A stretch of DNA of 64,000 nt from Larus michahellis (lineage: Eukaryota; Chordata; Aves; Charadriiformes; Laridae), in the NCBI RefSeq assembly GCF_964199755.1, contig NC_133928.1:62001-126000 (forward strand), in the 5' to 3' direction. The notes below the pieces were generated by a model. That model worked only from the letters and a program-made list of their open reading frames with translations, had not been told where the DNA came from and ran no database searches. The position numbers and the translations under genes are program-made. Within the stretch, counting starts at the first letter, position 1. Every line of letters starts with the position of its first letter. Shown in pieces: positions 18,311 through 63,157 of the stretch.

Positions 18311-20834
18311 TGCTGTTGGGGGTCCCGGGGCGCCCCGACGGCCCCCCCTCGCTCTGCGACCCCCGGGTGATGGAGAGGTTCATCCTGGAGGCCCGCGACG
18401 CCGAGAGGGGGCTGGTGAGGGGGGGCTCGGGGACATCGCGGGGGGGAGGGGCACAGGGACCACCCGGGGGGCTTGGGAACACGGTGGGGGGCTTGGGGAC
18501 ATCATGTCGGGGGGAAGAGGGATCCCCGGGGGGGGGGGACAGGGACCCTTTGGGGGCCTGGGGACACTGAGGCAGACAGGGACCCCCTGGGATGGTCCTG
18601 GGGAGGGTTGGGGACAGTGGGGGGGGGGGACGGGACACAGGACCCCTGGGGGTCTTGGGGACACTGTCGGGGGGACAAGGACCCCTGTTGTGGCCCGGGG
18701 GGGGGCTTGGGGACAGCATGGGGTGGCTGTCAGGGGGTTTGGGGACACCGGGGGGGGACAAGGACCCCTGGGGTGGCCCTGGGGGGGGGGAGGGGGTTGG
18801 GGACAGCGTGGGGCCGGGTGGGTGGCAGCGTCCCCCTCCCACCCCCAACCCCCCCCCAGGCCGGCTGCGGCCCCCCCTGTGACCTGCCCGAGGCGGTGGC
18901 CGTCCCCGACCCCGGCGTCAACTTCAACAACTGGCGGCGGATGGATGTGAGTGGGGAAAACGGGGCCAAACGGAGGGAAATCGGGCAAAACCGGGGGAAA
19001 TTGGGCAAAACGGGGGGAAGTTGGGCAAAATGGGGCCAAATCGGGGGGGGGGGATTGGGTGAAATGGGGCAAAATGGGGCAGAAAATGGGTAAAATGGGG
19101 AGAAACGGGGAAAACCGGCAAAACAGGAGAACTGGGCAAAATGGGAAGAAACGGGGAAATTGGGGAAAATGGGGCAAAACAAGGCGAAAGGGGCAAACTG
19201 GGGAGAAACGGGGCAAACTGGGGAGAAACGGGGCAAACTGGGCCAAAACAAGGAGAATCGGGGTGAAATGGGGCGGGATGGAGAGAAATGGGGCTAAAGT
19301 GGGACAAATTGGGGAAAACTGGGGAGAAATGGGACGAAACGGGGGAAAATGGGGAGAGACTGGGGGTGAACTGGGATGAACTGGGGGTGATGGGGAGTGG
19401 GGGGGGGTCCCCGGGGGTGGTGGCCGTCCTGGGGTGCCCCTGGGTGTCCCCAGGCCCCTGTGTGACCCCCCCATGACCTCGTGCCTCCCCCCCCCCCCGC
19501 ATTTCACCACATCCCCAAGTGACCCCCCCCAACATCCCCATGTCCCCCTCCGTGCCCCCTGTGCCCCCCTGACCCCCCCCCCAAGTCCCTGTGTCCCCTG
19601 ATATCCTCATGTCCCCCTCACCCCCCCCGTGCCCCCCCCAATGTCCCCACGTCCCCCCAGGCCCCTAATGTCCCCCTGTGACCCCCATGACCTCCAACGT
19701 CCCCCCCCATGCCCCCCGAGCCCCCATGTCCCTGTGCCCCCTGACGTCCCCATGTCCCCACAGGCCCCCCCAACTCCCCCCCCTCCAATGTCCCCGTGTC
19801 CCCCCCGGCACCCAATGTCCCCAAGTGCCCCCCCCCATGACCCCGTGCCCCCCAATGTCTCCCCATGCCCCCCCCCCCCCGCCGTGCCCCCTCCCGTGCC
19901 CCCCCCTGTGACCCCGGTCCCTGCCCGCAGGCGGGGGCGCGGGCGCGCGAGGTGGGGGGGGGCCAGGCGGTGCTGGTGGCCGCCGTCCTGCGGGCACGGG
20001 AGCTGCTGCCGGACCCCCGCCTGCGCCCCACGCTCGACCGGGCCTACAGCGCGGCCCGCAGCCTGGCCCACCTCCTGCGGGGGGTCCCCGCCCCGGTACG
20101 GGGGACTGCGGGGGGGCGGGGGGTGTCCCTGTCCCAGTACAGGGGGGCTGGAGGGGTCCTGGGGGGGGTCCCTGCCCTGGTATGGGGGTCCTGGGGGGGG
20201 GGGGTGTCCCTGCACCACTATAGGGGGGCTGGGGGAGCCTGGGGGCGTCCTGGGGGTCCTGGGGGGGCCCTTGCCCCAGTATGGGGGACTGGGGGGGGTC
20301 GGGTGGGGGGTCTCTGTCCCACTACAGGGGGGGCTGGAGGGGTCTGGGGGGAGGTCCTGGGGGGTCCCTGCCCTGGTATAGGGGTCCTGAGGGGGGGGTC
20401 CCTGGCCCCTTATAGGGGAGATGGGGAGGTCCTGGGGGGGCGGGGTGGGGGGCTCCTTGCCCTGGTATGGGGGGGGTCTGGGGAGGTGCCTGGAGGGGGG
20501 GGGCGGGAATGGGGTCCTGGGGGGGGGGGGGGGCGGGAATTGGGGGTCATGGAAGGTTTTGGTGGGGGGGGTGGGGGTGGGGGGGTGTCCCACCCTGGTA
20601 TGGGGGTCCCTGGAGGGGGGGGATGGGGGAATGGGGGTTCCCACCCCAGTGATGGTGGGGGAGGGGGGCGTCAGTGGTCTCTGACACCCCCCCTCCTCCC
20701 CCCCCAGACCCCCTCCCCGACCTCCCCCCCCCCCCGGGGTGCGGGTGCGGAGCCTGGCGCGGCTGCTGGGGGTGCACAGCAGCTTCCTGCGCGGCAAGGT
20801 CCGGCTCTTCCTCGCCGACGCCTGTCAGCGATGA
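17718..20834 (+). CDS. EPO: EPO, erythropoietin
   Basis: Five exons: 17718-17730, 18290-18414, 18860-18946, 19931-20095, 20708-20834. EPO is the secreted four-helix cytokine that drives red-cell production through EPOR. Exon 1 supplies 13 coding bases and exon 3 is 87 bases, both as in human. Seen: signal peptide MGAAGLCALLLMLLGVPG; helix A SLCDPRVMERFILEARDAE; a CGPPC loop (human CAEHC); VPDPGVNFNNWRRM; ARSLAHLLRG (human LRSLTTLLRA); C-terminus FLRGKVRLFLADACQR (human FLRGKLKLYTGEACRTGDR). All four disulphide cysteines are present. No N-X-S/T sequon exists. Start 17718 was chosen because the ATG at 17704 runs into a stop after splicing. Exon 5 needs a one-base shift at a 12-C run (20724-20735) to enter the FLRGK frame: an assembly error, unusual splicing or real damage. 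Confidence 0.92.
18420..18830. repeat. GGGGACAAGGACCCCTGGGG repeat, EPO intron 2
   Basis: Degenerate units of about 55-65 bases with TTGGGGACA and AGGGACCCCTGGG. Confidence 0.8.
18950..19395. repeat. GGGGAGAAACGGGGCAAACT repeat, EPO intron 3
   Basis: Purine-rich tandem units of about 11-21 bases (GGGGCAAACTGGGGAGAAAC), G-rich and nearly T-free on this strand. Confidence 0.9.
19460..19925. repeat. CCCATGTCCCC repeat, EPO intron 3 (3' part)
   Basis: C-rich tandem of AATGTCCCC, CATGACC and GTGCCCCC units running up to the exon 4 acceptor. Confidence 0.8.
20070..20690 (+). repeat. Exon-edge minisatellite, EPO intron 4
   Basis: The 3' edge of exon 4 with its donor (GGTCCCCGCCCCG/GTACGGGGGACTG) is the first unit of an array of about nine degenerate copies, for example GGTCCCTGCCCTGGTATGGG. 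Several copies keep a GTATGG donor-like core (20180, about 20277, 20465, about 20597). Confidence 0.75.
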
Positions 20835-20836
20835 CG

Positions 20837-21048
20837 GACAGCTGTCAATCACCCACCAGACCCCGCCCCCCCCCCCTTATCCGCCCCCCCCCCCCCTTCC
20901 TTTCACTCCCCCCCACCTCGACCCCCCCCCTGCGGACCCTCCCCCCGGCACGTTGGACGTCCCGGCAGGTGATTGACAGCTGTCAATCATCCTCCGGTGG
21001 AGCGACAGGCCCAGGCCCGGCGGGCGATTGATTGACAGCTGTCACTCA
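20837..21048. promoter_or_regulatory. Three palindromic PBX-MEIS/E-box motifs after EPO stop
   Basis: 20970-20989 is the perfect 20-base palindrome TGATTGACAGCTGTCAATCA. Partial copies are at 20837-20851 and 21029-21048. Each half is TGATTGACAG, the PBX:MEIS/PREP composite consensus, and the centre is the E-box CAGCTG. The first copy starts three bases after the EPO stop. Confidence 0.7.
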
Positions 21049-21557
21049 GGGGAGACGCAGCCCCCCCCCCCCCCCCCCAATTCCCCCCCCCCCCGTAACT
21101 TAATGCGAACATGAGAGTATTTATCTGAGCTGTGCCCCCTCCCCCCCCCGCCTCCTCCCTGCGCCTGGAGCCCCCCCCCGAACCCTGTGGGACCCCCGAA
21201 AACCCCTGGGTGTCCCCCCCCCATGGACACCTGGGTCCTCCCCCCCGAGCTTGGAACCGCCCCCCCCGGACGCCTGGGTCCCCCTAAACCTCCTGGAGCG
21301 CCCCCCCCCCCCCGCCCCCAGGACAGCTGGGTTCCCCATGACTCCCCGTCCCCGGGGACCCCGATGAACCGCCCCCCCCCCCCACCACCGCCCCGAGGTC
21401 AACCCCTGGACGCCTGGGTCCCCCCCCCGGACACCTGGGTCCCCCCAGAGACCCTGGGACACCCCCACCCCCCACCCCGGCCCTGGTCGCCTGGGTCCCC
21501 TCTTCCCTCCACACACACACCCCCCCCCCGGCCCCCCCGGGGTCATTGACCGGGGTC
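21049..21557. other. EPO-TFR2 intergenic region
   Basis: No gene is seen. GTATTTATCTGAG near 21117 carries an ATTTA motif and, on the minus strand, AGATAA. No AATAAA for EPO was found, so the EPO 3' end is undefined. From 21170 the region holds GGACGCCTGGGTCC-type repeats. Confidence 0.5.
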
Positions 21558-21565
21558 AGATAAGG
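21558..21565 (+). promoter_or_regulatory. GATA motif between EPO and TFR2
   Basis: AGATAAGG, a WGATAR GATA-factor site, about 525 bases upstream of the TFR2 ATG. It could serve TFR2 or EPO. Confidence 0.4.
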
Positions 21566-22084
21566 GGCAGCCAGACCGGGCGGCGCCGGGGCGGGGCCTC
21601 TGCGTGGCCACGCCCCCTTTCCCCGTAGAGCCACGCCCACTCATTGAGAAAGCCCCGTCCCTTCCCCACGAGACCACGCCCCCTCCACGAAAAGCCCCGC
21701 CCCGATTTCCCCACAAAGCCCCGCCCCTTCCCACAAGACCACGCCCCCTCCCACACAAAGCCCCGCCCCCTTTTGGCGCCTCGCGGGGGGGGGGGGGGGG
21801 CGGGGGCAGAGCGGGACCGAGCGGCCTCGGGGTGAGCGGGGTCGGGGGGGGCCTGGGGGGTGGGGGGGGCGGTTTGGGGGGTCAGGGGGGACGTGGTGGG
21901 CTCGGGGGGGGGGATTTTTGGTGGGGGGGGAACACGGGGAGGTGGCGGGGGGGACACAAAGTCTGGCTGGGGGCAAAGTCCACCCTATGGGGGGGTGGGG
22001 GGGGGGTGCAGCCTCCTGGGCCCCCCGGACCCCTCTTGGGCCCCCCCATAAGCCTCCTGGGCCCCCCCCAAGGACCCGGCAGCG

Positions 22085-28000: not shown

Positions 28001-31000
28001 GACCCCGCCCCCTCGCAGACTGTTACGTCATCGTGGGGGCGCAGCGCGATTCGCTGGGGCCGGGGGCGGCGGCCTCGGGGGTGGGCACCGCCCTCCTGCT
28101 GGAGCTGGCCCGGCTCTTCGCCGCCATTGGGCGGGACGGTGAGGGCGGGGCCGGAGGGCGGGGCCAGAGGGGGTGGGGCCGGGGGGGCGGGGCATTGGGG
28201 TGGGAAAAGGGCGGGGTTTGGGCCCCTGGATGCCTCTGACCCCCCCCCCCATCACCCCCCCCAGCCCCGTGTGACCCCCCCCGGCCCCTGTGACCCTCTG
28301 GATGCTGGGTCGCCCCTGGCCCCCCGTGACCCCCCCCGACCCCCGTGACCCCCCCTGACCCCCGTGACCCCCCCGTGACCCCCCCGTGACCCCGGCCCCG
28401 CCCCCCGCAGGGTTCCAGCTCCGCCGGACGCTGCTCTTCGTCAGCTGGGACGGGGGCGAGTTCGGGCACTTGGGGGCCACCGAGTGGCTGGAGGTCAGTC
28501 CCCACGGCGGGGTGTCCCCGTGTCCCCCCCGCGTGTCCCCATGTGTCCCCCCCCCCCATGTCTCCACGTCCCCCCGTGTCCCTGTGACCCCCCCATGTCC
28601 CCCTGTCCCCATGTGTCCCCATGTGTCCCCCCCATGTCCCCATGAACCCCCGTGTCCCCGTGTCCCCCCCCATGTCTCCACGTCCCCCCCATGTCCCTCT
28701 GACCCCCCCATGTCCCCACGTCCCCCCGTGTCCCCCCATGTCCCCGTGACCAACTGTGTCCCCGTGTCCCCATGTGTCCCCCGTGTCCCCCCGTGTCCCC
28801 GTGTTGCCATGTCCCCCCATATCCTCGTGTCCCCCCCGTGTCCCCATCACTGACCGTGTCCCCCCATGTCCCCTCGTGTACCTGTCACTGTGTCCCCGTG
28901 TGTCCCCGTGTCCCCATGTCCCCCCCGTGTCCCCACGTGTCCCTGTGTCCCCCCCATGTCCCCATCACTGACCGTGTCCCCCCGTGACCCCCCCAGGGTT
29001 ACCCCGACCTCCTCCACACCAAAGCCGCCGCCTACATCAGCCTGGACCAGGCCATGCTGGGTGAGCCCCTCCCCCACCCCAGGACGGGGGGAGGGGATGT
29101 CCCCTCCCCCCCCTCCCCCCACCCCCCCCCCGGCCACCTGGGATCACCTGACGCCCCTCCCCCCACCAGGTGACGACCGTTTTGTGGCCAAAACCAGCCC
29201 GATGCTGGTCAACCTCCTGGAGAGCGCCCTGGGCCAGGTGGGGGGAGGGGCCGGGGGGGGGGTGGGGGAGGGGTGTCGTGTCACGTGACGTCCCCCCCCT
29301 CCCCCCCCCCCCCCCGGCTCATCACCCCTCCCCCCCCCAGGTGGAGAGCCCCAACGAGGGCGGGAAAAGCCTCTTGGAGGCGGTGACGCGGCCGGGGCGG
29401 GGCTGGGAGAGTGACGTGTGAGCGCCGGGGGGGGGGTCCGGGGGGGGGGTCGGGTGGGTCCGGGGCGGGGGAAGGAGCGGGGATGTTGCGGGGGGGGTCG
29501 GGGGGTCGGGGCCGAACGGCGGGATCCCCCCCTTGGGGGAGGGGGAGGGGGAGGGAAGGGGTTCCCCAAACCCCTGGGTCCCCCCCCGGGGGGGTGGGGG
29601 AGGGGCGTTGGGGGGTGGGGGGGGAGGGGAGGGCTCGGCACCCCCCCCACCCCCCACCCCTCGACGCCTGGGACCCCCCCCCAGGATCCGGCCGCTGCCC
29701 CCCGAAAGCGGCGCCTTCCCCTTCACGGCCGCCGCCGGCGTCCCGGCCCTGGAGCTCGGCTTCGACGAGGTGGGGGGTCCCCGTGTCACCCCCCCCCCCC
29801 GCCCCCGTGTCCCCATCATGGATCACGTCCCCATCACTGGCCACCCCCACGTCCCCCCCGGGTGGTCCCAAGTGTCCCCGTGTCACCCCCGTGTCCCCGT
29901 GAATCGTCCCCGTGTCCCCCCCCCGGTGCCCCCACCGCAGGCCACGGCCCTCCGTGTCCCCGTGACCGACCACGTCCCCGCGTGTCCCCGTGTCCCCCTG
30001 AGTCCCTGTCCCCACGTCCCTCCGTGTCCCCGTGACCGCGTGCACCCCATGCCCCCCCTCGTGTCCCCACGTCCCCTCCGTGTCCCCTTGTCCCCCTCAA
30101 TGACCGTGTCTCCATGTCCCCCCCCACGTGTCCCCACGTCCCCTCTGCGTCCCCTTGTCCCCGTCACCAACCACGTCCCCGTGTCCCCTTGTCCCCGTCA
30201 CCATGTCCCCCCCCCCGTGTCCCCGCAGGCGCCGGGGGGGTGGTCGCGGGCGGCGCTGGGGACACGCGAGGACACGCTGGGGCGGCTGCAGGGGCGGCTG
30301 CGGGGGCGGCTGCCGGCGGTGGCCCGAGCGGTGGCCGCGGTGGCCGCCCACCTCCTGCTGCGCCTGGGCCACGACGCCCGGCTGCCCCTCGACCCCGGCG
30401 CCCTGGGGGACGCGCTGCTGCGGCGCCTGGCGCCCCTCCAGGTCAGACCAGTATAGCCCAGTATAGCCCAGTATAGACCAGTGTGGCACTGGGAGGGCAC
30501 TGGGAGGGTACTGGGGGACACTGGGGGACACTGGGGCTGCCCCTGAACCCTGGTGCCCTGGGGGACGCGCTGCTGCGGCGCCTGGAACCCCTCCAGGTCA
30601 GACCAGTATGAACCAGTATAGACCAGTGTAGACCAGTATAGCCCAGTATAGACCAGCGTGGCACTGGGAGGGCACTGGGAGGGTATCGGGGGACACTGGG
30701 GGACACTGGGGCTGCCCCTGGACCCCGGTGCCCTGGGGGACGCGCTGCTGCGGCGCCTGGCGCCCCTCCAGGTCAGACCAGTATGGACCAGTATAGACCA
30801 GTATAGACCAGTGTGGCACTGGGAGGGTATCAGGGGACACTGGGGGACACTGGGGCTGCCCCTGGACCCTGGTGCCCTGGGGGACGTGCTGCTGCGGCGC
30901 CTGGCGCCCCTCCAGGTCAGACCAGTATGGACCAGTATAGACCAGTATAGACCAGTGTGGCACTGGGAGGGCACTGGGAGGGTATCGGGGGACACTGGGG

Positions 31001-33436
31001 GACACTGGGGCTGCCCCTGGACCCCGGCGTCCTGGGGGACGCGCTGCTGCGGCGCCTGGAACCCCTCCAGGTCAGACCAGTATGAACCAGTATAGACCAG
31101 TGTAGACCAGTATAGCCCAGTATAGACCAGCGTGGCACTGGGAGGGCACTGGGAGGGTATTGGGGGACACTGGGGGACACTGGGGCTGCCCCTGGACCCT
31201 GGTGCCCTGGGGGACGCGCTGCTGCAGCGCCTGGCGCCCTTCCAGGTCAGACCAGTATGGACCAGTATAGCCCAGTATAGCCCAGTATAGACCAGTGTGG
31301 CACTGGGAGGGCATCGGGGGACACTGGGGGACACGGGCTGCCCCTGGACCCTGGTGCCCTGGGGGACGTGCTGCTGCGGCGCCTGGCGCCCCTCCAGGTC
31401 AGACCAGTATGGACCAGTATGGACCAGTATAGCCCAGTATAGACCAGTATAGACCAGTGTGGCACTGGGAGGGCACTGGGAGGGTATCGGGGGACACTGG
31501 GGGACACTGGGGCTGCCCCTGGACCCCGGCGCCCTGGGGGACGCGCTGCTGCGGCGCCTGGCGCCCCTCCAGGTCAGACCAGTATGAACCAGTATAGCCC
31601 AGTACAGCCCAGTAGAGCCCAGTGTGGCGCTGGGGCCGTCCCCGCGGTGTCCCCAACGCCCCCGCTGTCCCCAGGGCCGGGGGCTGTCCCTGCAGTCCCT
31701 GTCCTCGGCCCGCGGGGACGTCGTGCGAGCGGCCGAGAGGCTGCGCCGGGAAATGGCCGGCTCCGACGGCACCAACGAGCGGCTCAACCGCGGCTTCAAC
31801 ACCCGCATCATGGCCGTGAGTGGCACCGCCACCCTGTCACCCTGTCACCCTGCCACCCTGCCACCCTGCCACCCTGTCACCCACCCTGTCCCCTCGACGC
31901 CCGCATCATGGCCGTGTCATCATCACTGTCACCCCGTCACCGTCCCTGTCCCCGTTGACCACGTCCCCAACCCCGTCCCTGTCCCCATCCCATTGACCGT
32001 GTCCCCGTCCCTGTCCTGTCCCCACTGATGGTGTCCCCACCCTTGTCCCTGTCCCCATTGACCACGTCCCTGTCCCCATCCCCGTCCCTGTCCCCATCCC
32101 ACTGATGGTGTCCCCGTCCCTGTCCCTGTCTTTATCCCCATTGACCACGTCCCTGTCCCCGTCCCCATCCCTGTCCCCACCCCACTGACAGTGTCCCTGT
32201 CCCTGTCCCCATCCCCATCCCACTGATGGTGTCCCCGTCCCTGTCCCTGTCCCCATTGACCACATCCCTGTCCCCATCCCTGTCCCCACCCCACTGATGG
32301 TGTCCCTGTCCCTGTCCCCATCCCTGTCCCCACCCCACTGATGGTGTCCTCATCCCTGTCCCCATCCCTGTCCCCACCCCACTGACGGTGTCCCCGTCCC
32401 TGTCGCCATCCCTGTCCCCACCCCACTGATGGTGTCCCCGTCCCTGTCCCCATCCCTGTCCCCATTGACCACGTCCCTGTCCCCATCCCTGTCCCCACCC
32501 CACTGACAGTGTCCCCGTCCCTGTCCCCATCCCTGTCCCCATTGACCACATCCCTGTCCCCATCCCTGTCCCCACCCCACTGACAGTGTCCCCGTCCCTG
32601 TCCCCATCCCTGTCCCCATTGACCACGTCCCTGTCCCCATCCCTGTCCCCACCCCACTGATGGTGTCCCCGTCCCTGTCCCCATCCCTGTCCTCATTGAC
32701 CACGTCCCTGTCCCCATCCCTGTCCCCACCCCACTGACAGTGTCCTCGTCCCTGTCCCCATCCCTGTCCCCACCCCACTGACGGTGTCCCCGTCCCTGTC
32801 CCCATCCCTGTCCCCACCCCACTGATGGTGTCCCCGTCCCTGTCCCCATCCCTGTCCCCACCCCACTGATGGTGTCCCCGTCCCTGTCCCCATCCCTGTC
32901 CCCAGGCGGAGGCCTCGCTCCTGTCCCCTTTCGTGTCCCCCCTGGTCACCCCCTTCCGCCACGTGCTGCTGGGCCGGGGGGGCCACACGCTGCCGGCGCT
33001 GGCGGCCCAGCTGGGGAGGGGACAGGGCTGGGGGACGCGGGGGGACACCCGCCACCTCCGCCTGCGCCTGGCCCTGCTGACCTGGACCCTGCAGGGGACG
33101 GCCGGGGCCCTGGCCGGGGACGCCTGGGACCGTGGGGACATCTGGGGGCGGGGGGACATGGGGGACCGGGGGGACATCTGGGACCTTGGTGGCTCTGGGG
33201 ACACTGGAGATCGTGGGGACAACGGGGACATTGGAGACCGTGGGGACACCAGGGACCGTGGTGCCCTTGGGGACAAGGGGGACACCTGGGACTATGGGGA
33301 CACCTGGGACTATGGGGACCATGGGGACACCTGGGACCGTGGTGGCCTTGGGGACAACGGGGACCATGAGGACACGTGGGACCGTGGTGGCCTTGGGGAC
33401 CATGGTGACACCCAGGATCATGGTGGCCCTTGGTGA
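22085..33436 (+). CDS. TFR2: TFR2, transferrin receptor 2
   Basis: Eighteen coding exons: 22085-22117, 22875-23079, 24020-24206, 24673-24807, 25225-25330, 25627-25749, 26119-26235, 26751-26887, 27414-27583, 28019-28138, 28411-28493, 28997-29060, 29170-29237, 29341-29417, 29685-29769, 30229-30441, 31675-31815, 32906-33436; 864 aa (human 801). TFR2 is a type II membrane iron sensor of liver and erythroid cells, binding holotransferrin and HFE. Seen in order: cytoplasmic YSRH and an acidic Glu run; a membrane segment across exons 2/3; [105 protein letters not shown]. The human GRGDHTL motif reads GRGGHTL here. The frame then runs on into a minisatellite. The N-terminal exons are the least certain. 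Confidence 0.96.
22130..22850. repeat. AAAAAGGGGACCCAG repeat, TFR2 intron 1
   Basis: About fifteen degenerate units of CCCCAAAAGGGGACCCAG(G/A)T with C-run spacers. Confidence 0.85.
23095..24000. repeat. CCATTACACCCC repeat, TFR2 intron 2
   Basis: An almost continuous array of TTACCCC/TTACACCCC words of 7-12 bases. It resembles a degenerate telomere-like C-rich repeat but is not CCCTAA. Confidence 0.9.
24210..25220. repeat. TGACCCC / GGGGTCA half-site array, TFR2 introns 3-4
   Basis: Intron 3 is a (TGACCCC)n array (24210-24670) and intron 4 its inverse, GGGGTCA (24808-25190). It includes a perfect DR1, AGGTCAAAGGTCA, at 25063-25075, the HNF4/RXR consensus. Confidence 0.8.
25340..25620. repeat. 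GACCCTGACCCC repeat, TFR2 intron 5
   Basis: Short tandem CCTGACCCC/CCGACC words between exons 5 and 6, the same family as intron 3. Confidence 0.8.
25755..26110. repeat. GGGGAGGGGCGGGACAATGGG repeat, TFR2 intron 6
   Basis: G-rich tandem units of about 40-60 bases. No exon is seen. Confidence 0.75.
26245..26740. repeat. G-rich degenerate repeat, TFR2 intron 7
   Basis: GGGGGGCTGGGGGGCAAC and GGGGATTTGGGGG words. Strong potential for G-quadruplexes. Confidence 0.7.
27590..28010. repeat. GGGCGTGGCCTTTGTG repeat, TFR2 intron 9
   Basis: Tandem GGGGCGTGG(C/T)TTTG and GTGTGGCC words (CACCC/GC-box type) between exons 9 and 10. Confidence 0.75.
28495..28990. repeat. CCCCATGTGTCCCC repeat, TFR2 intron 11
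   Basis: Tandem CCCCCGTGTCCCC and CCCATGTCCCC words. Confidence 0.85.
29790..30225. repeat. GTGTCCCCGTGACC repeat, TFR2 intron 15
   Basis: Tandem GTCCCC(G/A)TG words, the same family as intron 11. Confidence 0.85.
30370..31620 (+). repeat. Exon-edge minisatellite: tandem copies of TFR2 exon 16 end plus donor
   Basis: The last ~70 bases of exon 16 ([20 protein letters not shown]) with the CAG/GTCAG donor and following intron recur seven more times. The true donor is at 30442; copies are at 30597, 30772, 30916, 31071, 31246, 31398 and 31573. The spacings 155, 175, 144, 155, 175, 152, 175 and shared variants (CTGGAACCC in copies at 30597 and 31071) show a three-unit higher-order repeat. Confidence 0.93.
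31830..32904. repeat. CCCTGTCCCCATCCCTGTCCCC minisatellite, TFR2 intron 17
   Basis: About twenty units of roughly 48-60 bases with CACTGATGGTGTCCCCGTCC or ATTGACCACGTCCC, ending exactly at the exon 18 acceptor. Confidence 0.92.
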
Positions 33437-34220
33437 CACCTGGGACTGTGGGAACACCTGGGATCATGGTGGTCTTGGGGACCTTGGGGACAGCCGGGGT
33501 TGTGGTGGCCCTTGGGGACAACGGGGACAGCTGGGACCATGGGGACACCTGGGACCGTGGTGGCCTTGGGGACACCTGGGGTTGCAGAGGCCCTTGGGGA
33601 CAACGGGGACAGCTGGGACCGTGGTGGCCTTGGGGACCTTGGGGACAGCTGGGGTTGTGGTGGCCCTCAGGGACAACGGGGACACCTGGGACCATGGGGA
33701 CACCTGGGACCGTGGTGGCCTTGGGGACACCTGGGGTTGCAGAGGCCCTTGGGGACAATGGGGACAGCTGGGACCGTGGTGGCCTTGGGGACCTTGGGGA
33801 CAGCTGGGGTTGTGGTGGCCCTTGGGGACAACGGGGACAGCTGGGACCGTGGTGGCCTTGGGGACCTTGGGGACAGCTGGGGTTGTGGTGGCCCTTGGGG
33901 ACAACGGGGACAGCTGGGACCGTGGTGGCCTTGGGGACCTTGGGGACAGCTGGGGTTGTGGTGGCCCTTGGGGACAACGGGGACAGCTGGGACCGTGGTG
34001 GCCTTGGGGACCTTGGGGACAGCTGGGGTTGTGGTGGCCCTTGGGGACAACGGGGACAGCTGGGACCGTGGTGGCCTTGGGGACCTTGGGGACAGCTGGG
34101 GTTGTGGTGGCCCTTGGGGACAACGGGGACAGCTGGGACCGTGGTGGCCTTGGGGACGCCCAGGATCACGATGGCCCTTGGTGATGCTGGGGACCGTGGT
34201 GGCCTTGGGGACGCCGGGGA
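33128..34220 (+). repeat. GGGGACxxxTGGGACCGTGG minisatellite, TFR2 3' end
   Basis: The array begins inside the TFR2 coding exon (33128-33433 is translated) and runs through the 3' UTR. Its distal part settles to an exact 73-base period (ACAACGGGG at 33828, 33901, 33974, 34047, 34120). 73 is not a multiple of 3, so this part could not extend one reading frame periodically. Confidence 0.92.
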
Positions 34221-34300
34221 CATCGAGGACGCCCCTGGCTGGCCCCGCCCCCTCATTTGCATACGGCGGGCGGGGCGCGGGGGAGCCGCCGTCGCCGCGT

Positions 34301-34306: not shown

Positions 34307-34365
34307 GGCTGCGACTTCGGGCCATAAATAACAGAATTTGGGGAAAACCTGCCCCGAAGGAGCAC

Positions 34366-35137: not shown

Positions 35138-48114
<12,977 letters not shown>

Positions 48115-48124
48115 AGCGGCACCG

Positions 48125-48530: not shown

Positions 48531-48534
48531 ACCC

Positions 48535-49990: not shown

Positions 49991-49999
49991 CGGGACGCT

Positions 50000-50669: not shown

Positions 50670-50674
50670 GTGTG

Positions 50675-51240
50675 GGGGGGCCCCGGCGTGACATCACGGG
50701 GACGGGAGGGGGTGTCGGGGGGTTCGGGGGGGGCCATGGCGGGGGGTGAGAGGTCGGGGGGGGGGGTTCGGGGGGGTTGTGGGATAGTGGGGGGTCGGGA
50801 GGGCCCCGGGGGATTGTGGGATATTGGGGGTGTCCTGGGGGATGGTGGGATTTTGGGGGGGTCGGGGGGTTCCCGGAGGATCATGGGATGCTGGGGGGGC
50901 CGCAGGGGATTGGGGGATTTTGGGGGGCTCCTGGGGGATCATGGGAACCTGGGGGGGCAGAGGATGGCGGGATATTGGGGGCTTTTGGGGGGCGGGGGGG
51001 GGCCCTTGGGGGATTGTGGGTTATTGGGGGGGGTCCTGGGGGATTGGGGGATATTGGGGGGGGTTGGGGGGATGAGGGGGATTGCGAGATGCTGGGGGTT
51101 CCCGAGGAATTTTGGGGTATTGGGGGGGGTGGGAGACTCTGGGGTTTGAGGGGGGGGGGGTTGGGTTCTCTCTGGAGGGGCCGCAAGGGATTGTGGGGTA
51201 CCGGGGATGCCCCTTGGGGGGGCTGAGGGGGTAAGGGAGA
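50675..51240. repeat. GGGGGATTGTGGGATATTGGGG repeat, SRRT intron 1
   Basis: About fifteen units of 30-40 bases of GGGGGATTGTGGGATATTGG type. Confidence 0.88.
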
Positions 51241-51300
51241 CCCCGTGGGGGTCCCCGCTGACCGTGTCCGTGTCCCCCCCCCCCCCCCCCCCCCAGCGCC

Positions 51301-54300
51301 ATGGGGGACAGCGACGACGAGTACGACCGGCGCCGGCGGGACAAGTTCCGTCGGGAGCGCAGCGACTACGACCGCTCGCGGGAGAGGGACGAGCGGCGGC
51401 GTGATGACTGGAGCGACCGGTGCGGCGCTGCGGGGGGGGGCCCCAACCCCCGGGGACGGGGGGGGCGGGCGGGCAGGCACAACCCCCCCCAGGTTGTCCC
51501 CAACATCCCCGGGGTGTCCCCAGTGCCGTGTCCCCCCACCTTCCTCGGGCAGCGACTGGGATCGGAGCCAGGAGCATCTCAGTGGGGGTGTCTCCAAACC
51601 CCGCCCGGGGGGGGGGTCCCCAACCCCTCGGGGGGGTCCCCAAACGCCCCCAAGGTGTCCCCAGCGCTGTGTCCCCCCACCCGCCTGGTGCAGGGTCTGG
51701 GATCGGGGCCAGGAATGGCATGATGGGGGGGTCCCCAACTCCCCCTAGGATGTCCCCAACTGCCCGCGGGGTCCCCAGTGCTGTGTCCCGCCCCCACCCC
51801 GATGCAGGGACTGGCATTGGGGCAGGGAGCATGGCGACAGGGGGGTCCCCAACCCCCCCCAGAGAGTTCCCAATGCCTCGGGGGGGTTCCCAAGCCCCCC
51901 CCCCCCGCCTGTCCCCAACGCTGTCCCTGTCCCCCCAGAGACTGGGATCGGGGCCGGGAGCGCCGCAGCCGGGGCGAGTACCGGGATTACGACCGGACAC
52001 GCCGGGAGCGGTTCTCACCCCCTCGCCACGAGCTCAGCCCCCCCCAGAAACGCCTGCGCCGCGACTGGTGAGTGTCCCCCCCCCGAACCGCGTGCCCCTG
52101 CCCCTGAACCCCACCACAGCCCCCACAAATGTTGCTGTAGCCCCCCCCAAATCTTACCACGGTCCCCCCAAACCCCACAGCAGCAACCCCACAGATCTCA
52201 ACGCATCCCCCCATTCCGTTGGCAGCCCCTCCAAATCCCATCACAGCTTTCCAAATTCTACCGCAGCCCCCCCAACGCCGCACCGGCCCCCTCCGAGCGA
52301 CCCCCAGATCCTGCCGCAGCCCTCCAATCCTCACCGTAGCCCCCCACAAATCCCATGGCAGCCCACCACAGCCCCCCAGCCCCTGCTGCAGCCCCCAAAA
52401 CTCTGCCACAGCCCTCCCAGTCCCCACAGCGGCCCCCCCAACACCGCCACAGACCCCCCCAAACCCCACCACAGCGTCACAGTCCTATGGCAGCCCCCAC
52501 AAACCCCACCACAGCCCCCTCAGACCCCGCCATAGCCCCCCAGTCCCATGGCAGCCCCCCAAAACCCCATGGCAACCCCTCAAACCCCATCACAGCCCCT
52601 CAGACCCTGATGTCCCCCTCCTCCGCCAGGGATGAGCACAGCGGGGATCCCTACCACAGCGGCTACGACATGCCCTACAGCGGGGGGGGCGCCGGCCCCA
52701 CCTACGGCCCCCCCCAGCCCTGGGGGCACCCCGAGATGCACGTCATGCAGCACCACATCCTGCCCATCCAGGCCAGGTAAGGACTCTGCCCCCTGCTCTG
52801 CCCCCCAGCACCCCCAAAACCACCTCAGCAGCCCCCCAGGTCCTTCCCTGTTCACCCCCAGGGCCCGAATCGGACAGTAATTGCCCCAAAGTGCCCCGTA
52901 ATGGCCCAAATCGCCCAGTAATTGCCTCAACCCCCCACCCAAATGTCCCAAATCACACGGTGATTGCCCCAAACCGCCCCAAAACAGCCCAAATCACGCA
53001 GTAATTGTCTTACAGCTACCAGTAACGTCCTTTGGTGACCCAGTAACAGTCTGAACTGCGCCATGAGGTCATTAAGCTGCCCCATAATGTCACTGAGTCG
53101 CCCAGTAACGGCCCCAAACTGCCCCATAATGGGCTCAAATTGCTGCAGGATTTCCCCAAGGCAGTAATTACCAACTCAAAGGATCCTGAACTGCCCCGTA
53201 ATGTATTTGAGCCACCCGATAACAGCCGAAACTGCCCCATAAGAGCCCCAACCCGCCCTGTAATGTCCTTGAGCCACACAAAACCAGACGAAACTGCCTC
53301 ATAATGGGCCCAAATTGCCCTATAAGAACTCTGAAGCCCCTACTAACAGCCCAAAGTACCCTGTAATGTCTCTGAGCCACCTAATAACAACCTAAAATAC
53401 CGCATAAGGTCTCCAAACTGCCCCGTAATATTCCTGAACTGCCCAATAACAGCTCTAAGTCTCCTATAATGGACCCAAACTGCGCTATAATATGTCTGAA
53501 TTGCCCGGTAGCAGCCCAGAGTTCCCTGTAATGTGTCTGAGCCACCCAGTAACAGCCTAAAATGCCCCATAAGGGCCCCAAACTGCCCCATGATGTCCCT
53601 GAGCCACCCGGCAACAGCCCAAACCGCTCCGTAATGGACCCAAACCGCCCCATTATGGCTCTGAGCCACTCAATAACAGCCCAAACTACCCCGTAATGGT
53701 CCCAAACTGGCTTACGAGGGACGGAACCTGCCCTGTAACGTTCACGAGTCTCCTCATAACAGCCGGGAATGTCCCGTAACGGCCCCAGACTGCCCCATGA
53801 CGTCTCTGAGCCGCCCAATAGCGGCCTAAAATGTTCTTTAATGGCCCCAAACTGACCTTTACTGGCCCCAAACTGGCCTATAATGGCCCCAAACTGCCCC
53901 ATGACGTTTCTGAGATGCCCAATAACGGCCTAAAATGTTCTTTAATGGCCCCAAACTGACCTATAATGGCCCCAAACTGCCCCGTGATGCCCCTGACCCC
54001 CCCAGTAACAGCCCGGAGTGCCCCATAACGTCCCCAAACTGCCCCATAAATGCCCCAAACCGCCCCGTAAGGAGGCGGCAGCGTCCCCGTGTCGGGGGTG
54101 CCGACTCCTGCCTGTGCCCCCAAGCAGACTGGGGAACATCGCGGAGGTGGACCTGGGCATGGCCCCCCCGGTGATGAAGAGCTTCAAGGAGTTCCTGCTC
54201 TCCCTGGACGACGCCGTGGACGAGACGGAGGCGGTGAAGCGATACAACGACTACAAGCTCGATTTCCGCCGCCAGCAGATGCAGGATTTCTTCCTGGCCC

Positions 54301-57300: not shown

Positions 57301-60300
57301 CTTGGGCCCATGGGGGTGTCTCCTGGGGGTCCCTGGGGTCTCCTCAGGGGTCCCCTTGGCCCCGGGGGGTCTCTTTTGGGGTTCCCCGGCCCTGTGGGTC
57401 CCCCTGCTCCCCGTGACACCCCCTGCCCCCCCCCCCCCCCCCAACCAGGGCGAGGGGGAGGCGCCGAGCGAGGAAAAGGCCAAGAAGGGGCCGGAGGAGG
57501 AGGAGGAGAAGGAGAAGGGACGGAAGGAGGAGGAAGGGGACAAGGAGGGCAAGAAGGTGAGCGGGACACGCCCACATCAGGCCACACCCCCCGCCTGTCA
57601 GGCCCCACCCCCTGGAATAGGCCCCACCCCATCCACCAGTGCCTGTGGCTTGTGCTGAAGCCCCGCCCCCTTTCTGCCAAGCCCCGCCCCCTTTCTGCCA
57701 AGCCCCACCCACCAATGGGCTGGGCCCGCCCCCTTTTTGAAAACCCGCCCTCCCTTTTGAAACCCCACCCCCTTTCCATTAAGCCCCGCCCATTGCAAGC
57801 CCCACAGGCCCCTCCCCTTGAGCCAAGCCCCTCCCCTTTCCCTCAGGCTCCTCCCCCTTTTCTTTGGCACCTCCCATTCGGACAAGCCACGCCCCCTTTC
57901 CCCAGGCTCCACTCCTTCACTCAAGCCCCGCCCCTTCCCCAAGCACCGCCCCCTTCCCCTGCTCTGCCCCTGGGCCCCGCCCCCTGCCGAGGCCCCGCCC
58001 CCCGGCCCCGCCCCAGCGCCCCCTGTCGGCCCCTCCCAGGCCAGCAAGAAGCGGCCGCGGCAGCGCAACGGGGACGACAGCGACGAGGGCAGCGCCAGCG
58101 ACTCCGAGAGCGAGGGCGAGGGCGGCCGCGGGGACAAGGACGGTGGGACACGGCGGGGGACACACGGGGAGGGCGGGGGGGGGACGGACAGGGAGGGTCT
58201 TGGGGAGGGTCCCTGATGCCCTTGGGGGACCCAGGGAGCTCCCCGGGGGGTCCTTCGCGGGGCGTGGGGGACCCTGGGGGGACAAGAGCGTGCCAGGGGG
58301 ATCTTGGGAGTCCCTGGGGGGGACGTGGAGAATCTTGGGGGGCTCCTTGAGGTCTTTGGGGTGGTATTGAGGATGTGGGGGGGTCATGGAGGGTCTTGGG
58401 GGGACACTGAGGTCCCCTTGGGGGGGTCCCAGAGATACTTGGGGGGATATTGAGGGTCTTGGGGGATGTGGGGTTCCTTGGGGGGATCCTCAGGGGGATG
58501 CTGAGGTCCCCCTGGAGGGGGGGGGGATGGTCCCTGAGGCCCTTGGGAGTCCCTGGGGGGATACGGAGGGTCTTGGGGGGTCCCTGAGGTCGTTGGGGTT
58601 CCCTGGGAGGGGGCACTGAGGATCACTGAACGTCCTGGGGGGGTTAAATGGGACCTGGGGGGGGACACGGCGGGGGGGACTTCAGGGCTTGGAGGGGACT
58701 TAGGGGCTCCGGGGACACTGAATGGGGGCCGGGTCTTTGAGGGGTCCCTGCTTGTCCCTGACTCCCCCCATTTCCCCCCCACCGCCAACAGAGGAGAAGG
58801 GGAAGGAGGAAAAGGCCCGTGAGGAAGAGGGGGGGCCGGCGGCGCCGAAGGCCAAGGAGAAGGAGAGCGGGGGGGGGACGGAGCCCAAACCTCGCCCCCT
58901 CCACAAAACCTGCTCCCTCTTCATGCGCAACATCGCGCCCAACATCTCCCAGGCCGAGATCGTGGCGGTGAGACCCCCAACCCCCCCCCAAAAACCCCCA
59001 ACCACCCCCCAGCCCCCTCAAAACCCCCAACATCCACCAAAACCCCCCCCAAAACCCTCCCAAACCACCCCAAAAATACCCCAACCCCCCCAAGAACCCC
59101 TTCCAACCCCCCCAGCACCCCCCAAAAATACCCCAACCCCCTAAGTACCCCTTCCAACCCCCCCAAACCACCCCAAAAATACCCCAACCCCCCCAAGAAC
59201 CCCTTCCAACCCCCCCAGCACCCCCCAAAAATACCCCAACCCCCTAAGTACCCCTTCCAACCCCCCCAAACCACCCCAAAAATACCCCAACCCCCCCAAG
59301 AACCCCTTCCAACCCCCCCAAACCACCCCAAAAACACCCCAACCACCCCAAAAATACCCCAACCCCCCCAAGTACCCCTTCCAACCCCCCCAAACCACCC
59401 CAAAAATACCCCAACCCCCCCAAGAACCCCTTCCAACCCCCCCAGCACCCCCCAAAAATACCCCAACCCCCTAAGTACCCCTTCCAACCCCCCCAAACCA
59501 CCCCAAAAACACCCCAACCCCCCCAAGAAACCCTTCCAACCCCCCCAAACCACCCCAAAAATACCCCAACCCCCCCAAGTACCCCTTCCAACCCCCCCAG
59601 CACCCCCCAAAAAAACCTTCAACCCCTCCATCAAAAGCCTCCCTCCCCCCCAAAAAACTCCCACTCCTCCAAAACAGCCCAACCTTCCCGAAGCTGCCCA
59701 AGAAACCCCCACCCCCCCCTTAAAACCCCCCCAATAAGCCCTCAACCCCCCAAACCCTTCCCAGCACCTCCCAAACCCCCCCAAAAAACCCACCCCCTCA
59801 AGAAACCCCCAGCACCCGTGAAAAACCCCCCCCACCCCCAAAAAGCCCCTCAACCCCCCCCCAAACCCTCCCAGCAGCTCCCAAACCCCCCCCCAAAACC
59901 CCAAACTCCCTCCAAACCCCTCAACTCCCCCCCCCCCCAAATAACTCCCCCCCCTCAAAATAAACCCCCCCTTTCCCCCCCCCAGCTCTGCAAGCGCTAC
60001 CCCGGCTTCATGCGCGTGGCTCTGTCGGACCCCCAGCCCGAGAGGAGGTGGGTGCTGCCCCCCCCCCGGCCCCAATCTGGGGACCCCCCAGGGGTTTGGG
60101 GACCCCCCCCCGGAATGCGGGGGGGGGGGGGGGGGGGGTGTCTCACACCACGATGTCATCGTCGTCGTGTCCCCCCCCCCCAGGTTTTTCCGGCGGGGGT
60201 GGGTCACCTTCGACCGCAGCGTCAACATCAAGGAGATCTGCTGGAGCCTGCAGAACATCCGGGTGAGGGGGGGGCGTTCGGGGGGGGCGTTCGGGGGGTA

Positions 60301-63157
60301 TTTTGGGGTATTTTTGAGATTTTTTGAGGGGTGTTTTGGGCTTATTTTGGTGTTATTTCGGCGTTATTTCGGGGGCGTTTTCAGGATGAGTTTAGGGGTG
60401 TTCCAGGGTTATTTTCAGGGTTGTTTTTTGCGGGGGGGGGGGGGGATTATTTTGGGGGTATTTTGAGGATGGTTTTGGGGGTGTTTTGGGGTTATCTCGG
60501 GTTATTTTGGGGTATTTCGTGGTGTTTCGGGGTTACTTGGGGGTATTGTAGGGGTGTTTTCAGCACATTTTGGGGGGTGTTTGGGGTTATTTTGGGGGGT
60601 TTATAGAGTTATTCCGTGGGGGTTTTCTGAGTTTTGGGGTTTTGGGTGAGTTTCAGGGTTATTTCAGGGTTTCACCCCCCCCCCCGCCCCCCCCTTGTGG
60701 GACTGCGAGCTCAGCCCGGGGTGAACCAGGACGGACGCGCTGCGCTATTTTGGGGCCACTTTGGTGTATTTTGGGGCCATTTTAGTGTGGTTTTGGCCGG
60801 TTTGGGGGGATTTTTAGGTATTTTGGGGGGATTTTTAGGTATTTTGGGGGTTGTTTTGAGGTCTGACTCCCCCCCCTTTGCCCCCCCCCCAGAGCTGCGG
60901 GACTGAGCTGAGCCCCGGTGTGAACCGGGACCTGACGCGCTGGGCTATTTTGGGGCTACTTTAGTGTATTTTGGGGCTACTTTAGTGTATTTTGGGCTGG
61001 TTTGGGGGTATTTTCAGAGTATTTTTAGGTGATTTTGGGGCATTTTGAGGCCTGACCCCCCCCTTTGCCCCCCCCCAGCTGCGGGACTGCGAGCTGAGCC
61101 CCGGCGTGAACCGGGACCTGACGTGCTGGGCTATTTTGGGGCTACTTTAGTGTATTTTGGGGCTACTTTAGTGTATTTTGGGGCTACTTTAGTGTATTTG
61201 GGGGCTATTTTAGTGTATTTTGGGCTGGTTTGTGGGTATTTTTGGGTGATTTTGGGGCATTTTGAGACCTGACCCCCCCTTTGCTCCCCCCCCCAGCTGC
61301 GGGACTGCGAGCTGAGCCCCGGCGTGAACCGGGACCTGACGTGCTGGGCTATTTTGGGGCTACTTTAGCGTATTTTGGGGCTACTTTAGCGTATTTTGGG
61401 GCTACCTTAGTGTATTTTGGGGCTACCTCAGTGTATTTGGAGGCTATTTTAGTGTATTTTGGGCTGGTTTGTGGGTATTTTTGGGTGATTTTGGGGCATT
61501 TTGAGGCCTGACCCCCCCTTTGCTCCCCCCCCCAGCTGCGGGACTGCGAGCTGAGCCCCGGCGTGAACCGGGACCTGACGCGCCGCGTGCGCAACGTGAG
61601 CGGCATCACGCAGCACCGCCCCATCGTGCGCAACGACATCAAGCTGGCGGCGCGGCTGGTGCACGCCCTGGACGGCCGCGCCCAGCTCTGGGCCACGCCC
61701 GGCCACGCCCTCGGGGGGGCCGCGCCCCCGGGGGGCGGGGGGACGGCGGGGACGACGGGGGACGCGCCACCCCCCGCCTCCGCCACCCCCCAGAACCCCG
61801 AAGGGGGGGACGGGGACGCTGCCGCCGCCGCCGGGGTGAGTGTGGGGGGGTCAAAGGGGGGAGGTCTGGGGCGGGGGGGGGGCTCCGGTGTCACCTCGTG
61901 GTCCACGATGTCCCCCTCAATGTCCCCGTTGTCCCCTCATGGACCCCTCGTGGTCCTCACTGTCCCCTTGTGGTCCCCTCATGGTCACCACATGGTCCCC
62001 ATCGTCCCCTCCTGGTCCTTTCATGGTCCCCGCTGTCCCCTCGTGGTCCCCACTGTCCATCTCACGGTCCCCAGGTCCTTCCCATGATCCCCGAGTCCTC
62101 CTCGTGGCCCCTGGTGGTCCCCACGGCCATCTCATGGTTCCTGCGTCCATTTCTTGGTCCCCATCTCCCTCTGATGGTCCCTGGTAGTCCCCACATCCAT
62201 CTCGCAGTCCCCAAGTCCATCTCGTGATCCCCGCGTCCTCCTGGTGGTCCCCACATCCCCTTCGTGTTTCCCACTGACTCCTGGTGGTCCCCAGGTCCTT
62301 CTCGTGGTCCCCAAGTGCTCCTTGTGGCTCCTGGTGGTCCCCACGTCCATCTTATGGTTCTTACACCCCCCAGTGGTCCCCATGGCCATCTTGTGGTCCC
62401 CACGCCCCCGTGGTGGCCCCTGGTGGTCCTTACATCCATCTGGTGGTCCCCACGTCCCTCTGATGGTCCCTGGTGATCCCTATGTCCCCGTGGTGGTCCC
62501 TGGTGGTCCTTGCATCCATCTGGTGGTCCCCGTGTTCTGGTCCCCACGTCCCTCTGATGGTCCCTGGTGGTCCCCGTGTCCCCGTGGTAGCCCCTGGTGG
62601 TCCTTACATCCATCTGGTGGTCCTGGAGTCCTGGTCCCCATGTCCCTTTGATGGTCCCTGGTGGTCCCCACGTCCCCGTGGTGGCCGCGGGTGACGGCCG
62701 GGTGTCGGTGGCAGGCGGTGGGGTGGCAGAACCCGGTGCTGAAGCACATCACGGATTACCTGATCGAGGAGGTGAGCGCGGAGGAGGAGGAGCTGCTGGG
62801 CCGCAGCGGGGGCGACGCCGAGGAGGGGCCGCGCGAGGCCAACCCCGCCGAGGTCACCGTCGAGCGCGACGAGAAGCTCCTCAAGGTGACACCCCCTCCC
62901 GTCCCCTGCGTCCCCCTTGTCCCCATTCAACCTCCCTTGTCGCCGTCCCGTCCCCGTGTCCCCCCGCCGTCCCCGCGTCCCCCCTGATGTCCCGTGTCCC
63001 CAGGTGCTGGACCGGCTGCTGCTCTACCTGCGCATCGTGCACTCGGTGGATTACTACAACACCTCCGAGTACCTCAACGAGGACGAGATGCCCAACCGCT
63101 GCGGCATCGTGCACGTGCGGGGCCCCCTGCCCCCCAACCGCGTCTCCCACGGAGAGG
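51301..63157 (+). CDS. SRRT: SRRT (ARS2), serrate RNA effector molecule (3' part beyond window)
   Basis: Fourteen coding exons: 51301-51419, 51939-52067, 52630-52776, 54128-54316, 56367-56536, 56663-56823, 57449-57556, 58040-58142, 58792-58967, 59986-60047, 60184-60262, 61536-61835, 62715-62885, 63004-63157; 689 residues, then the gene leaves the window. SRRT links the nuclear cap-binding complex to pri-miRNA processing, 3'-end formation and RNA decay. Seen: [20 protein letters not shown] start; [77 protein letters not shown]; an acidic/Lys-rich linker (exons 7-9, diverged from human); RRM-like [90 protein letters not shown]. The zinc finger and C-terminus lie outside. Exon 14 has an alternative in-frame CAG acceptor 15 bases on (62729). 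Confidence 0.98.
51440..51975 (+). repeat. Exon-edge repeat: copies of SRRT exon 3 acceptor and start
   Basis: Exon 3 begins CCCCAG/AGACTGGGATCGGGGCC. Three tandem upstream copies of acceptor-like CAG plus this sequence lie in intron 2: near 51549 (CGACTGGGATCGGAGCC), 51692 (GGTCTGGGATCGGGGCC) and 51806 (GGACTGGCATTGGGGC), about 115-145 bases apart. Confidence 0.82.
52080..52620. repeat. CCACAGCCCCCCAAACCCC repeat, SRRT intron 3
   Basis: C/A-rich degenerate tandem units of about 20-30 bases (ACCACAGCCCC). Confidence 0.82.
52860..54065. repeat. CCCAAACTGCCCCATAATG minisatellite, SRRT intron 4
   Basis: About twenty units of 55-65 bases, CAAACTGCCCCATAATG plus GAGCCACCCAATAACAGC. The AT content is higher than in the surroundings. 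Near-identical copies lie at 53870 and 53940. Confidence 0.9.
54720..55160. other. AT-rich island with opposed poly(A) signals, SRRT intron 5
   Basis: The most AT-rich stretch of the window. It holds AATAAA on plus (54735-54740) and two AATAAA on minus (54954-54959, 54960-54965), T runs of about 14-18, and a (CAAA)n run near 55125. No coding frame is recognised. It may be a premature or antisense 3' end, or an old retro-insertion. Confidence 0.5.
55380..56240. repeat. CCCCACCCCAGATGTGCCAGA repeat, SRRT intron 5
   Basis: Two linked arrays: GGGGACACAGGGGCTCCCC type (55440-55900, about 50-base units) and GGGGTCCCCCCACCCCAGAT type (55930-56210, 35-45-base units). Confidence 0.88.
56830..57425. 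repeat. GGGGTCTCTTTTGGGGTCCC repeat, SRRT intron 7
   Basis: Units of about 25-35 bases: TTGGGGTCTCTCCTGGGGTC and CCCCTTGGCCCCTGGGG. Confidence 0.88.
57565..58030. repeat. AAGCCCCGCCCCCTTTCTGCC repeat, SRRT intron 8
   Basis: Tandem GC-box-like CCCCGCCCCCTTTC words of about 20-25 bases. Confidence 0.85.
58150..58770. repeat. GGTCTTGGGGGGACACTGAGG repeat, SRRT intron 9
   Basis: G-rich degenerate tandem units of about 30-40 bases. Confidence 0.8.
58970..59660. repeat. CCCCAAAAATACCCCAACCC minisatellite, SRRT intron 10
   Basis: About thirteen homogeneous units of 49-52 bases: AAAAATACCCCAACCCCC, AAGAACCCCTTCCAACCCCC, CAAACCACCCC or CAGCACCCCCC. The two endings suggest interleaved unit types. 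Confidence 0.93.
60263..60690. repeat. GGGTTATTTTGGGGTATTT repeat, SRRT intron 12 (5' part)
   Basis: T/G-rich tandem units of 12-25 bases, unusually AT-rich for the window. Confidence 0.85.
60690..61590 (+). repeat. Exon-edge repeat: copies of SRRT exon 13 acceptor and start
   Basis: Exon 13 begins CAG/CTGCGGGACTGCGAGCTGAG and encodes [15 protein letters not shown]. Four upstream copies of acceptor tract plus about 50 exon bases lie near 60696, 60894, 61079 and 61297, about 185-240 apart, joined by GCTATTTTGGGGCTACTTTAG. Copies 3 and 4 are almost identical to the true exon edge and its polypyrimidine tract. Confidence 0.93.
61850..62700. repeat. TGGTCCCCACGTCC minisatellite, SRRT intron 13
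   Basis: About thirty degenerate units of 18-36 bases: CTGGTGGTCCCCACGTCCCT, CATCTGGTGGTCC. Confidence 0.9.

What the first reader, a model, noticed from the sequence alone, without database searches (positions are those of the whole stretch)
20070..61590. A shared process: minisatellites that amplify exon edges with their splice sites
Five arrays in four genes (EPO, TFR2, EPHB4 and twice SRRT) within 42 kb repeat a donor or an acceptor with adjoining codons; a sixth repeat runs through the TFR2 terminal exon. The true exon edge is always the end unit of the array. This suggests that replication or recombination slippage in G-rich DNA starts at exon edges, or that decoy splice sites are retained. 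I know of no named system of this kind.
Basis: partly seen in the sequence, partly recalled or inferred. Interest (0 to 1): 0.85.

Follow-up and report, generated by a model that had tools for sequence, protein, structure and literature searches.

The report
Exon-edge minisatellites in bird-like introns
In a gene-dense, repeat-filled stretch that looks like a tiny bird chromosome, copying errors have multiplied the ends of some exons, splice sites included, into the neighbouring introns; this was described in chickens in 2026 as exon stuttering, so the arrays found here in four genes are further examples of it.

Summary
I modelled 6 genes, 71 exons and 65 introns. Six of 130 exon edges have copies in the adjacent intron that beat all 100 random-intron controls by at least 4 score units: the five reported, plus a single copy at the TFR2 exon 17 donor. 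The repeat through the TFR2 terminal exon is also real.

Hron et al. 2026 (PMC12954441) describe the process in chicken as "sequence stuttering", or "exon stuttering" when a lateral exon part and its splice site are copied. By their hit threshold 2 of 65 introns qualify here; they report 190 of 5,572. I found no preference for exon edges: 86 of 130 random intron probes pass the test that 6 of 130 edges pass, and random placement predicts 6.5 to 17.9 edge-spanning arrays. That the true edge is the end unit is forced by geometry.

Less expected: two arrays appear to be translated (EPHB4 exon 3, TFR2 C-terminus). Every EPHB4 unit counted keeps the frame, unlike in 25 noncoding arrays. RNA is needed to prove it.

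The parts
19931..20095 (+). EPO exon 4; its last 15 nt and donor are the first unit of the array
   Evidence: gene model; Pfam EPO_TPO
20073..20660 (+). EPO intron 4 array repeating the exon end and donor; scored decoys weaker than the true donor, three units have lost GT (by eye)
   Evidence: TRF 20073-20245; further units by eye
30229..30441 (+). TFR2 exon 16 (true donor after 30441)
30380..31623 (+). TFR2 intron 16 array: 8 units at spacings of 144-175 nt, each with 62 exon-derived nt and CAG|GTCAGA
31895..31913 (+).
32906..33436 (+). TFR2 terminal exon; its last 106 residues, from GDAWD on, read through the array to the first stop
33115..34157 (+). Array through the TFR2 terminal exon and beyond the stop; 9-nt rhythm before the stop, 73-nt period with a recurring +1 after it
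39348..39595 (-). EPHB4 exon 11 (true acceptor before 39595)
39570..40282 (-). EPHB4 intron 10 array: 8 decoy acceptors (40272, 40194, 40106, 40028, 39940, 39851, 39771, 39682), each with about 20 exon-derived nt
45798..46446 (-). In-frame array inside EPHB4 exon 3 (46812-45258), part of a 289-residue insert in the ephrin-binding domain
51540..51980 (+). SRRT intron 1 array (limits approximate) with three diverged decoy acceptors (51553, 51694, 51808) before the true acceptor of exon 2 (51939)
60690..61580 (+). SRRT intron 11 array: decoy acceptors near 60894, 61079, 61297 and a decayed copy near 60696, before true exon 12 (61536)

Best explanation
This is exon stuttering as described for chicken dot chromosomes. 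Local tandem duplication and later copy-number turnover act in most introns of a GC-rich, gene-dense microchromosome. Most duplicated segments lie inside an intron. Some by chance span an exon edge, and a contiguous tandem duplication that contains exon sequence and ends in the intron must contain the splice site. Such duplications survive because the extra copies stay in the intron: the original outermost site still makes the ancestral exon. Which copy is spliced is inferred, not shown. In introns of 519-1,273 nt the likely rule is exon definition, which picks the copy closest to the other end of the same exon. Duplications inside coding exons mostly do not persist, except in loops or tails that tolerate in-frame length change.
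For: Repeats are the norm in introns (61% of intron bases; 58 of 65 introns). 2 of 65 introns meet the published hit threshold, and both copied exon parts abut the border, against 190 of 5,572 and over 90% in the paper. Random placement predicts 6.5-17.9 edge-spanning arrays; 6 are seen, or 4 if only TRF arrays crossing the edge are counted. In TFR2 all 8 donors score alike, so strength cannot decide. Using any of 7 TFR2 decoys, 2 of 2 tested SRRT intron 11 decoys or 3 of 3 SRRT intron 1 decoys gives an early stop, so the outermost site is presumably used. Carranza et al. 2022 (abstract and Results read): minigenes with two identical strong 5' splice sites and 365-nt flanking introns used the upstream site exclusively. 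TFR2 exon-derived copies carry several amino-acid changes.
Against: No RNA, reads or second individual were available, so splice choice, copy number and variability are untested. In the same paper weakened identical 5' sites gave exon skipping in the larger constructs, and for 3' sites exon definition only reduced the upstream preference, so the EPHB4 and SRRT prediction is weaker. Exon-derived parts in SRRT intron 11 vary less than intron-derived parts (p 0.0004), and gapped columns are fewer in exon-derived parts of all three arrays compared. Two of 65 is a small count. The species and chromosome are not known. The placement model rests on estimated ancestral intron lengths and assumes edge-spanning duplications are as well tolerated as intronic ones.
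Confidence: 0.8

Rival explanations
1. Amplification starts preferentially at exon edges, for example because exon-intron composition steps stall replication.
For: Five arrays within 42 kb, each with a real edge at its end.
Against: Edges are repeated about 14 times less often than random intron positions by the same test (6 of 130 against 86 of 130); random placement predicts as many or more. Selection against exon change also lowers the edge count, so a mild edge preference is not excluded.
Confidence: 0.08
2. Decoy splice sites are kept by selection, to tune splicing or make variant proteins.
For: TFR2 8 of 8 identical donors; 4 of 7 scored EPHB4 decoys at least as strong as the true site; the nearest EPHB4 decoy adds 87 nt with an open frame; fewer changes in the exon-derived part of SRRT intron 11.
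Against: EPO and SRRT intron 1 decoys are weaker than the true sites and three EPO units have lost GT (by eye). 18 of 20 decoys tested in TFR2, EPHB4 and SRRT give an early stop or a frame shift. Recent turnover alone explains identical copies.
Confidence: 0.07
3. Assembly artefact: repeat copies inflated or invented.
For: EPO exon 5 is out of frame at a C run as assembled, which suggests homopolymer errors.
Against: Units differ from one another by substitutions and length; the other five gene models read open, SRRT through its 14 modelled exons; Hron et al. report that raw nanopore data confirmed the general structure for chicken PHF8. No reads were available for this window.
Confidence: 0.05

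Closest known systems
Sequence stuttering / exon stuttering of avian dot chromosomes (Hron et al. 2026, PMC12954441; abstract, section 7, section 8 part 1, Discussion and screen methods read)
   Same: Intron-filling imperfect tandem blocks of tens to hundreds of nt; lateral exon part with adjacent donor or acceptor copied through the neighbouring intron; comparable rate.
   Different: They report no case where blocks cross into exons; here two arrays lie in coding exons. TFR2, SRRT, EPHB4 and ACTL6B are not in their main text, and EPO only as a hidden gene; their 115-gene list (Fig. S5) was not seen, so these genes may be in it.
Tandem dual-specific splice sites in polyubiquitin UBC (Duan et al. 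2024, PMC10809524; abstract and one section read)
   Same: A tandem array with AG|GT at each unit, as in TFR2 intron 16 (8 of 8).
   Different: UBC units are coding and frame-keeping; TFR2 units are intronic, at spacings 155, 175, 144, 155, 175, 152, 175, and the AG|GT sites score low as acceptors (11th-18th percentile of real ones).
Introns from tandem arrays (Zhuo et al. 2007; only the reference entry seen; content recalled)
   Same: Splice signals carried in tandem repeats.
   Different: There the arrays are said to make new introns; here introns that already exist grow.

Membership tests
Exon stuttering (Hron et al. 2026) | Direct tandem copies of part of a coding exon in the adjacent intron | tested here: met
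   6 of 130 edges
Exon stuttering (Hron et al. 2026) | BLASTn-short hit of at least 20 nt and 42.1 bits in the neighbouring intron | tested here: met
   TFR2 intron 16 and SRRT intron 11 only, 2 of 65 introns; maximum in shuffled introns 34.2. EPHB4, EPO, SRRT intron 1 and TFR2 intron 17 fall below it
Exon stuttering (Hron et al. 2026) | Copied exon part reaches the exon border and includes the splice site | tested here: met
   both introns that pass the threshold; splice sites
Exon stuttering (Hron et al. 2026) | Introns rich in tandem repeats (published medians 7-93% for dot chromosomes) | tested here: met
   61% of intron bases, median intron 53%
Exon stuttering (Hron et al. 2026) | Location on an avian dot chromosome | not testable with these tools
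   no species or chromosome given; the genome search unanswered five times; composition and gene content fit
Exon stuttering (Hron et al. 2026) | Length variation between individuals | not testable with these tools
   no reads or second genome
Exon stuttering (Hron et al. 2026) | Blocks do not cross into exons (a reported observation, not a definition) | tested here: not met
   arrays in EPHB4 exon 3 and the TFR2 terminal exon as modelled
Dual-specific splice site array (UBC type) | AG|GT at every unit | tested here: met
   TFR2 intron 16, 8 of 8
Dual-specific splice site array (UBC type) | Units can be spliced in or out without harm to the frame | tested here: not met
   7 of 7 TFR2 decoys stop early

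The most novel reading that the evidence does not exclude
The same instability also runs through coding exons and is translated. EPHB4 would carry a roughly 290-residue, probably length-variable hydrophilic repeat inside its ephrin-binding domain, and TFR2 a 106-residue array-encoded tail, with selection tolerating only unit lengths that keep the frame. This would contradict the published statement that stuttering leaves coding regions intact.
Probability: 0.5. Interest if true: 0.6.

Novelty: new member of a known kind. Interest (0 to 1): 0.4.

Why it matters
The arrays are natural minigene tests: TFR2 intron 16 offers eight donors of equal strength in a row, so RNA from this gene would show directly whether splice choice follows exon definition. 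If the coding arrays are translated, this instability reshapes proteins as well as introns, which bears on why birds lost or hid so many genes of their smallest chromosomes. The placement result also gives a simple reason why published exon copies nearly always touch the exon border.

Tried and rejected
Edge-initiated amplification: not adopted. Selection on exon-derived decoy parts: mixed, not adopted. The first per-column comparison counted gaps as differences and overstated the exon-intron contrast; it was redone without gapped columns. There, unit 1 of EPHB4 and of SRRT was cut at a fixed length upstream, which adds intron variation. A sliding self-alignment meant to count indels let sequences align to their own overlap and is not used. 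Spacing test: arrays of at least 200 nt, non-overlapping, with at least 5 seed spacings; one array with 10% exon bases (61132-61580, 5 of 6 multiples of 3) fell in neither class, and the TFR2 coding part was scored instead. The unit pattern was chosen after reading the sequence. Intron reading of the EPHB4 exon 3 array: a good donor (46451) and a moderate acceptor (45772) bracket it, but that splice removes 679 nt and breaks the frame; it is not excluded if the assembly has a homopolymer error. The edge test used only the 60 exon nt next to each edge; whole exons were tested. The pseudo-edge control drew only from introns of 180 nt or more. In one search one EPHB4 decoy (39771) was missed by the search pattern and one SRRT decoy (60892) was scored out of register; both were left out of the strength counts. 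EPO decoy translations are uninformative because assembled exon 5 is out of frame. The published screen also involved manual review, which I did not copy. POP7 was left out of the edge counts because it was read by eye only and its intron looks noncoding.

Full report
What the window is. GC is about 70% and TRF reports 505 repeat rows covering 47% of the window. I built gene models from splice sites and open frames: MEPCE(-), ACTL6B(-), EPO(+), TFR2(+), EPHB4(-), SRRT(+), in all 71 exons and 65 introns; POP7(+) was read by eye. Pfam supports the families: EPO_TPO; Peptidase_M28 with PA for TFR2; kinase, Ephrin_lbd, fn3 and SAM for EPHB4; SERRATE_Ars2_N; Actin; Bin3. A PDB search gives ephrin type-B receptor 4 as best match for the ligand domain. 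The exact gene names otherwise rest on recalled protein sequences and gene order. TFR2, EPHB4, ACTL6B and MEPCE read as one open frame to a stop, and SRRT is open through its 14 modelled exons. EPO changes frame at a C run in exon 5. Species and chromosome were not given; 'bird microchromosome' is inference from composition and gene content.

The observation. The 60 exon nt next to each of 130 edges were aligned to the adjacent intron and to 100 same-length pieces of the other introns. Eight beat all 100; six did so by 4 or more: TFR2 16 donor, SRRT 11 acceptor, EPHB4 10 acceptor, TFR2 17 donor, SRRT 1 acceptor, EPO 4 donor. These are the five reported plus one single copy. Four edges are crossed by a TRF array with at least 12 exon nt. 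The repeat in the TFR2 terminal exon is real.

Is the edge special? By the same test 86 of 130 random 60-nt intron probes (introns of 180 nt or more) are repeated in their own intron, against 6 of 130 edges. If array units were placed uniformly, counting placements inside the intron or across either edge, 6.5 to 17.9 edge-spanning arrays are expected over twelve parameter settings; the chance of 6 or more is 0.69 to 1.0, and of 6 or fewer 0.51 down to below 0.001. The lower settings fit 6 well and the higher ones suggest a deficit. So there is no excess that needs an edge-specific cause. A contiguous tandem duplication that holds exon sequence and lies otherwise in the intron must contain the edge, and the true edge must be its outermost unit, because everything beyond it is constrained exon.

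What is known. Hron et al. 2026 (Genome Biol Evol; PMC12954441) describe massive local repeat expansion in introns of chicken dot chromosomes, name it sequence stuttering, and call it exon stuttering when a lateral exon part with the adjacent donor or acceptor is copied. They found it in 190 of 5,572 dot-chromosome introns, with over 90% of sources within 1 base of the border, and 183 of 192 exon-stuttering introns varied in length between chickens. With their hit threshold, without their manual review, 2 of 65 introns here qualify, TFR2 16 and SRRT 11, both abutting the border; the maximum in shuffled introns was 34.2 bits. They speculate on replication stress, G-quadruplexes or meiotic gene conversion. 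A search for their terms listed 5 papers, of which only this one is on the subject.

Splicing. Position weight matrices were built from this window's own sites without the six array edges. All 8 TFR2 donors are identical. In EPHB4, 4 of 7 scored decoys are at least as strong as the true acceptor. In SRRT intron 11, two decoys equal it. SRRT intron 1 decoys score 6.1-6.8 against 11.8, and the EPO decoys that keep GT 0.5-5.3 against 6.8. Using a decoy truncates TFR2 (7 of 7) and SRRT (5 of 5 tested); in EPHB4, 2 of 8 stay open to the normal stop, 3 of 8 shift frame and meet an early stop, and 3 of 8 shift frame without a stop. Since the genes look intact, the outermost site is presumably used. 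All six introns are 519-1,273 nt long, where exon definition should favour the site nearest across the exon: identical strong 5' sites with 365-nt flanking introns gave the upstream site only in Carranza et al. 2022, though weakened sites gave exon skipping in the larger constructs. For 3' sites that paper reports only a weakened upstream preference, so for the acceptor arrays this is less secure. Splice choice here is inference.

Fate of the copies. Among decoys and excluding gapped columns, exon-derived and intron-derived parts differ little in TFR2 (9 of 62 against 14 of 58 variable, p 0.25) and EPHB4 (4 of 22 against 22 of 55, p 0.11), but clearly in SRRT intron 11 (2 of 46 against 39 of 137, p 0.0004), where nested 21-nt repeats spoil the alignment and one of three units was cut at a fixed length. 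Gapped columns are fewer in exon-derived parts in all three (0 of 62, 0 of 22, 2 of 48, against 55 of 113, 16 of 71, 60 of 197), probably because those parts hold no short repeats. TFR2 exon-derived copies carry amino-acid changes such as D to N, A to E, A to V, R to Q and L to F; no ratio of change types was computed.

Arrays in coding exons. EPHB4 exon 3 holds 867 nt (289 residues) between CDSLPR and CKETF, where the solved EPHB4 structure 2bba (human, recalled) has four residues. The Ephrin_lbd match splits into two stretches. All 16 unit lengths are 30 or 42. With a mechanically chosen seed, 8 of 8 spacings are multiples of 3, against 95 of 268 in 25 noncoding arrays, none of which kept all spacings in frame. 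Against translation: substitutions by codon position are 27, 27 and 27, so there is no sign of amino-acid constraint; two of three frames lack stops; only two unit lengths exist, so the 16 are not independent; and a donor-acceptor pair brackets the array, though it breaks the frame. In TFR2 the C-terminal end runs straight into the array for 106 residues. Before the stop 23 of 24 GGGAC spacings are multiples of 9, the exception being the first; after the stop a recurring +1 appears in 9 of 48 spacings. These two cases depart from the paper's remark that no block was seen to cross into exons, and are the most interesting lead here.

Noticed in passing
45258-46812 (- strand): EPHB4 exon 3 has an in-frame 289-residue repeat-rich insert in the ephrin-binding domain.
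   Followed up: partly
33115-34157: The TFR2 C-terminus is extended by an array; a 9-nt rhythm before the stop gives way to a 73-nt period after it.
   Followed up: partly
20708-20834: EPO exon 5 is out of frame at a C run as assembled, probably a homopolymer error.
   Followed up: no
31895-31913: Single copy of the TFR2 exon 17 end in intron 17, perhaps an early stage of an edge array.
   Followed up: yes
30441, 30596, 30771, 30915, 31070, 31245, 31397, 31572: The TFR2 units carry AG|GT, which could act as dual-specific splice sites, though they score low as acceptors.
   Followed up: partly
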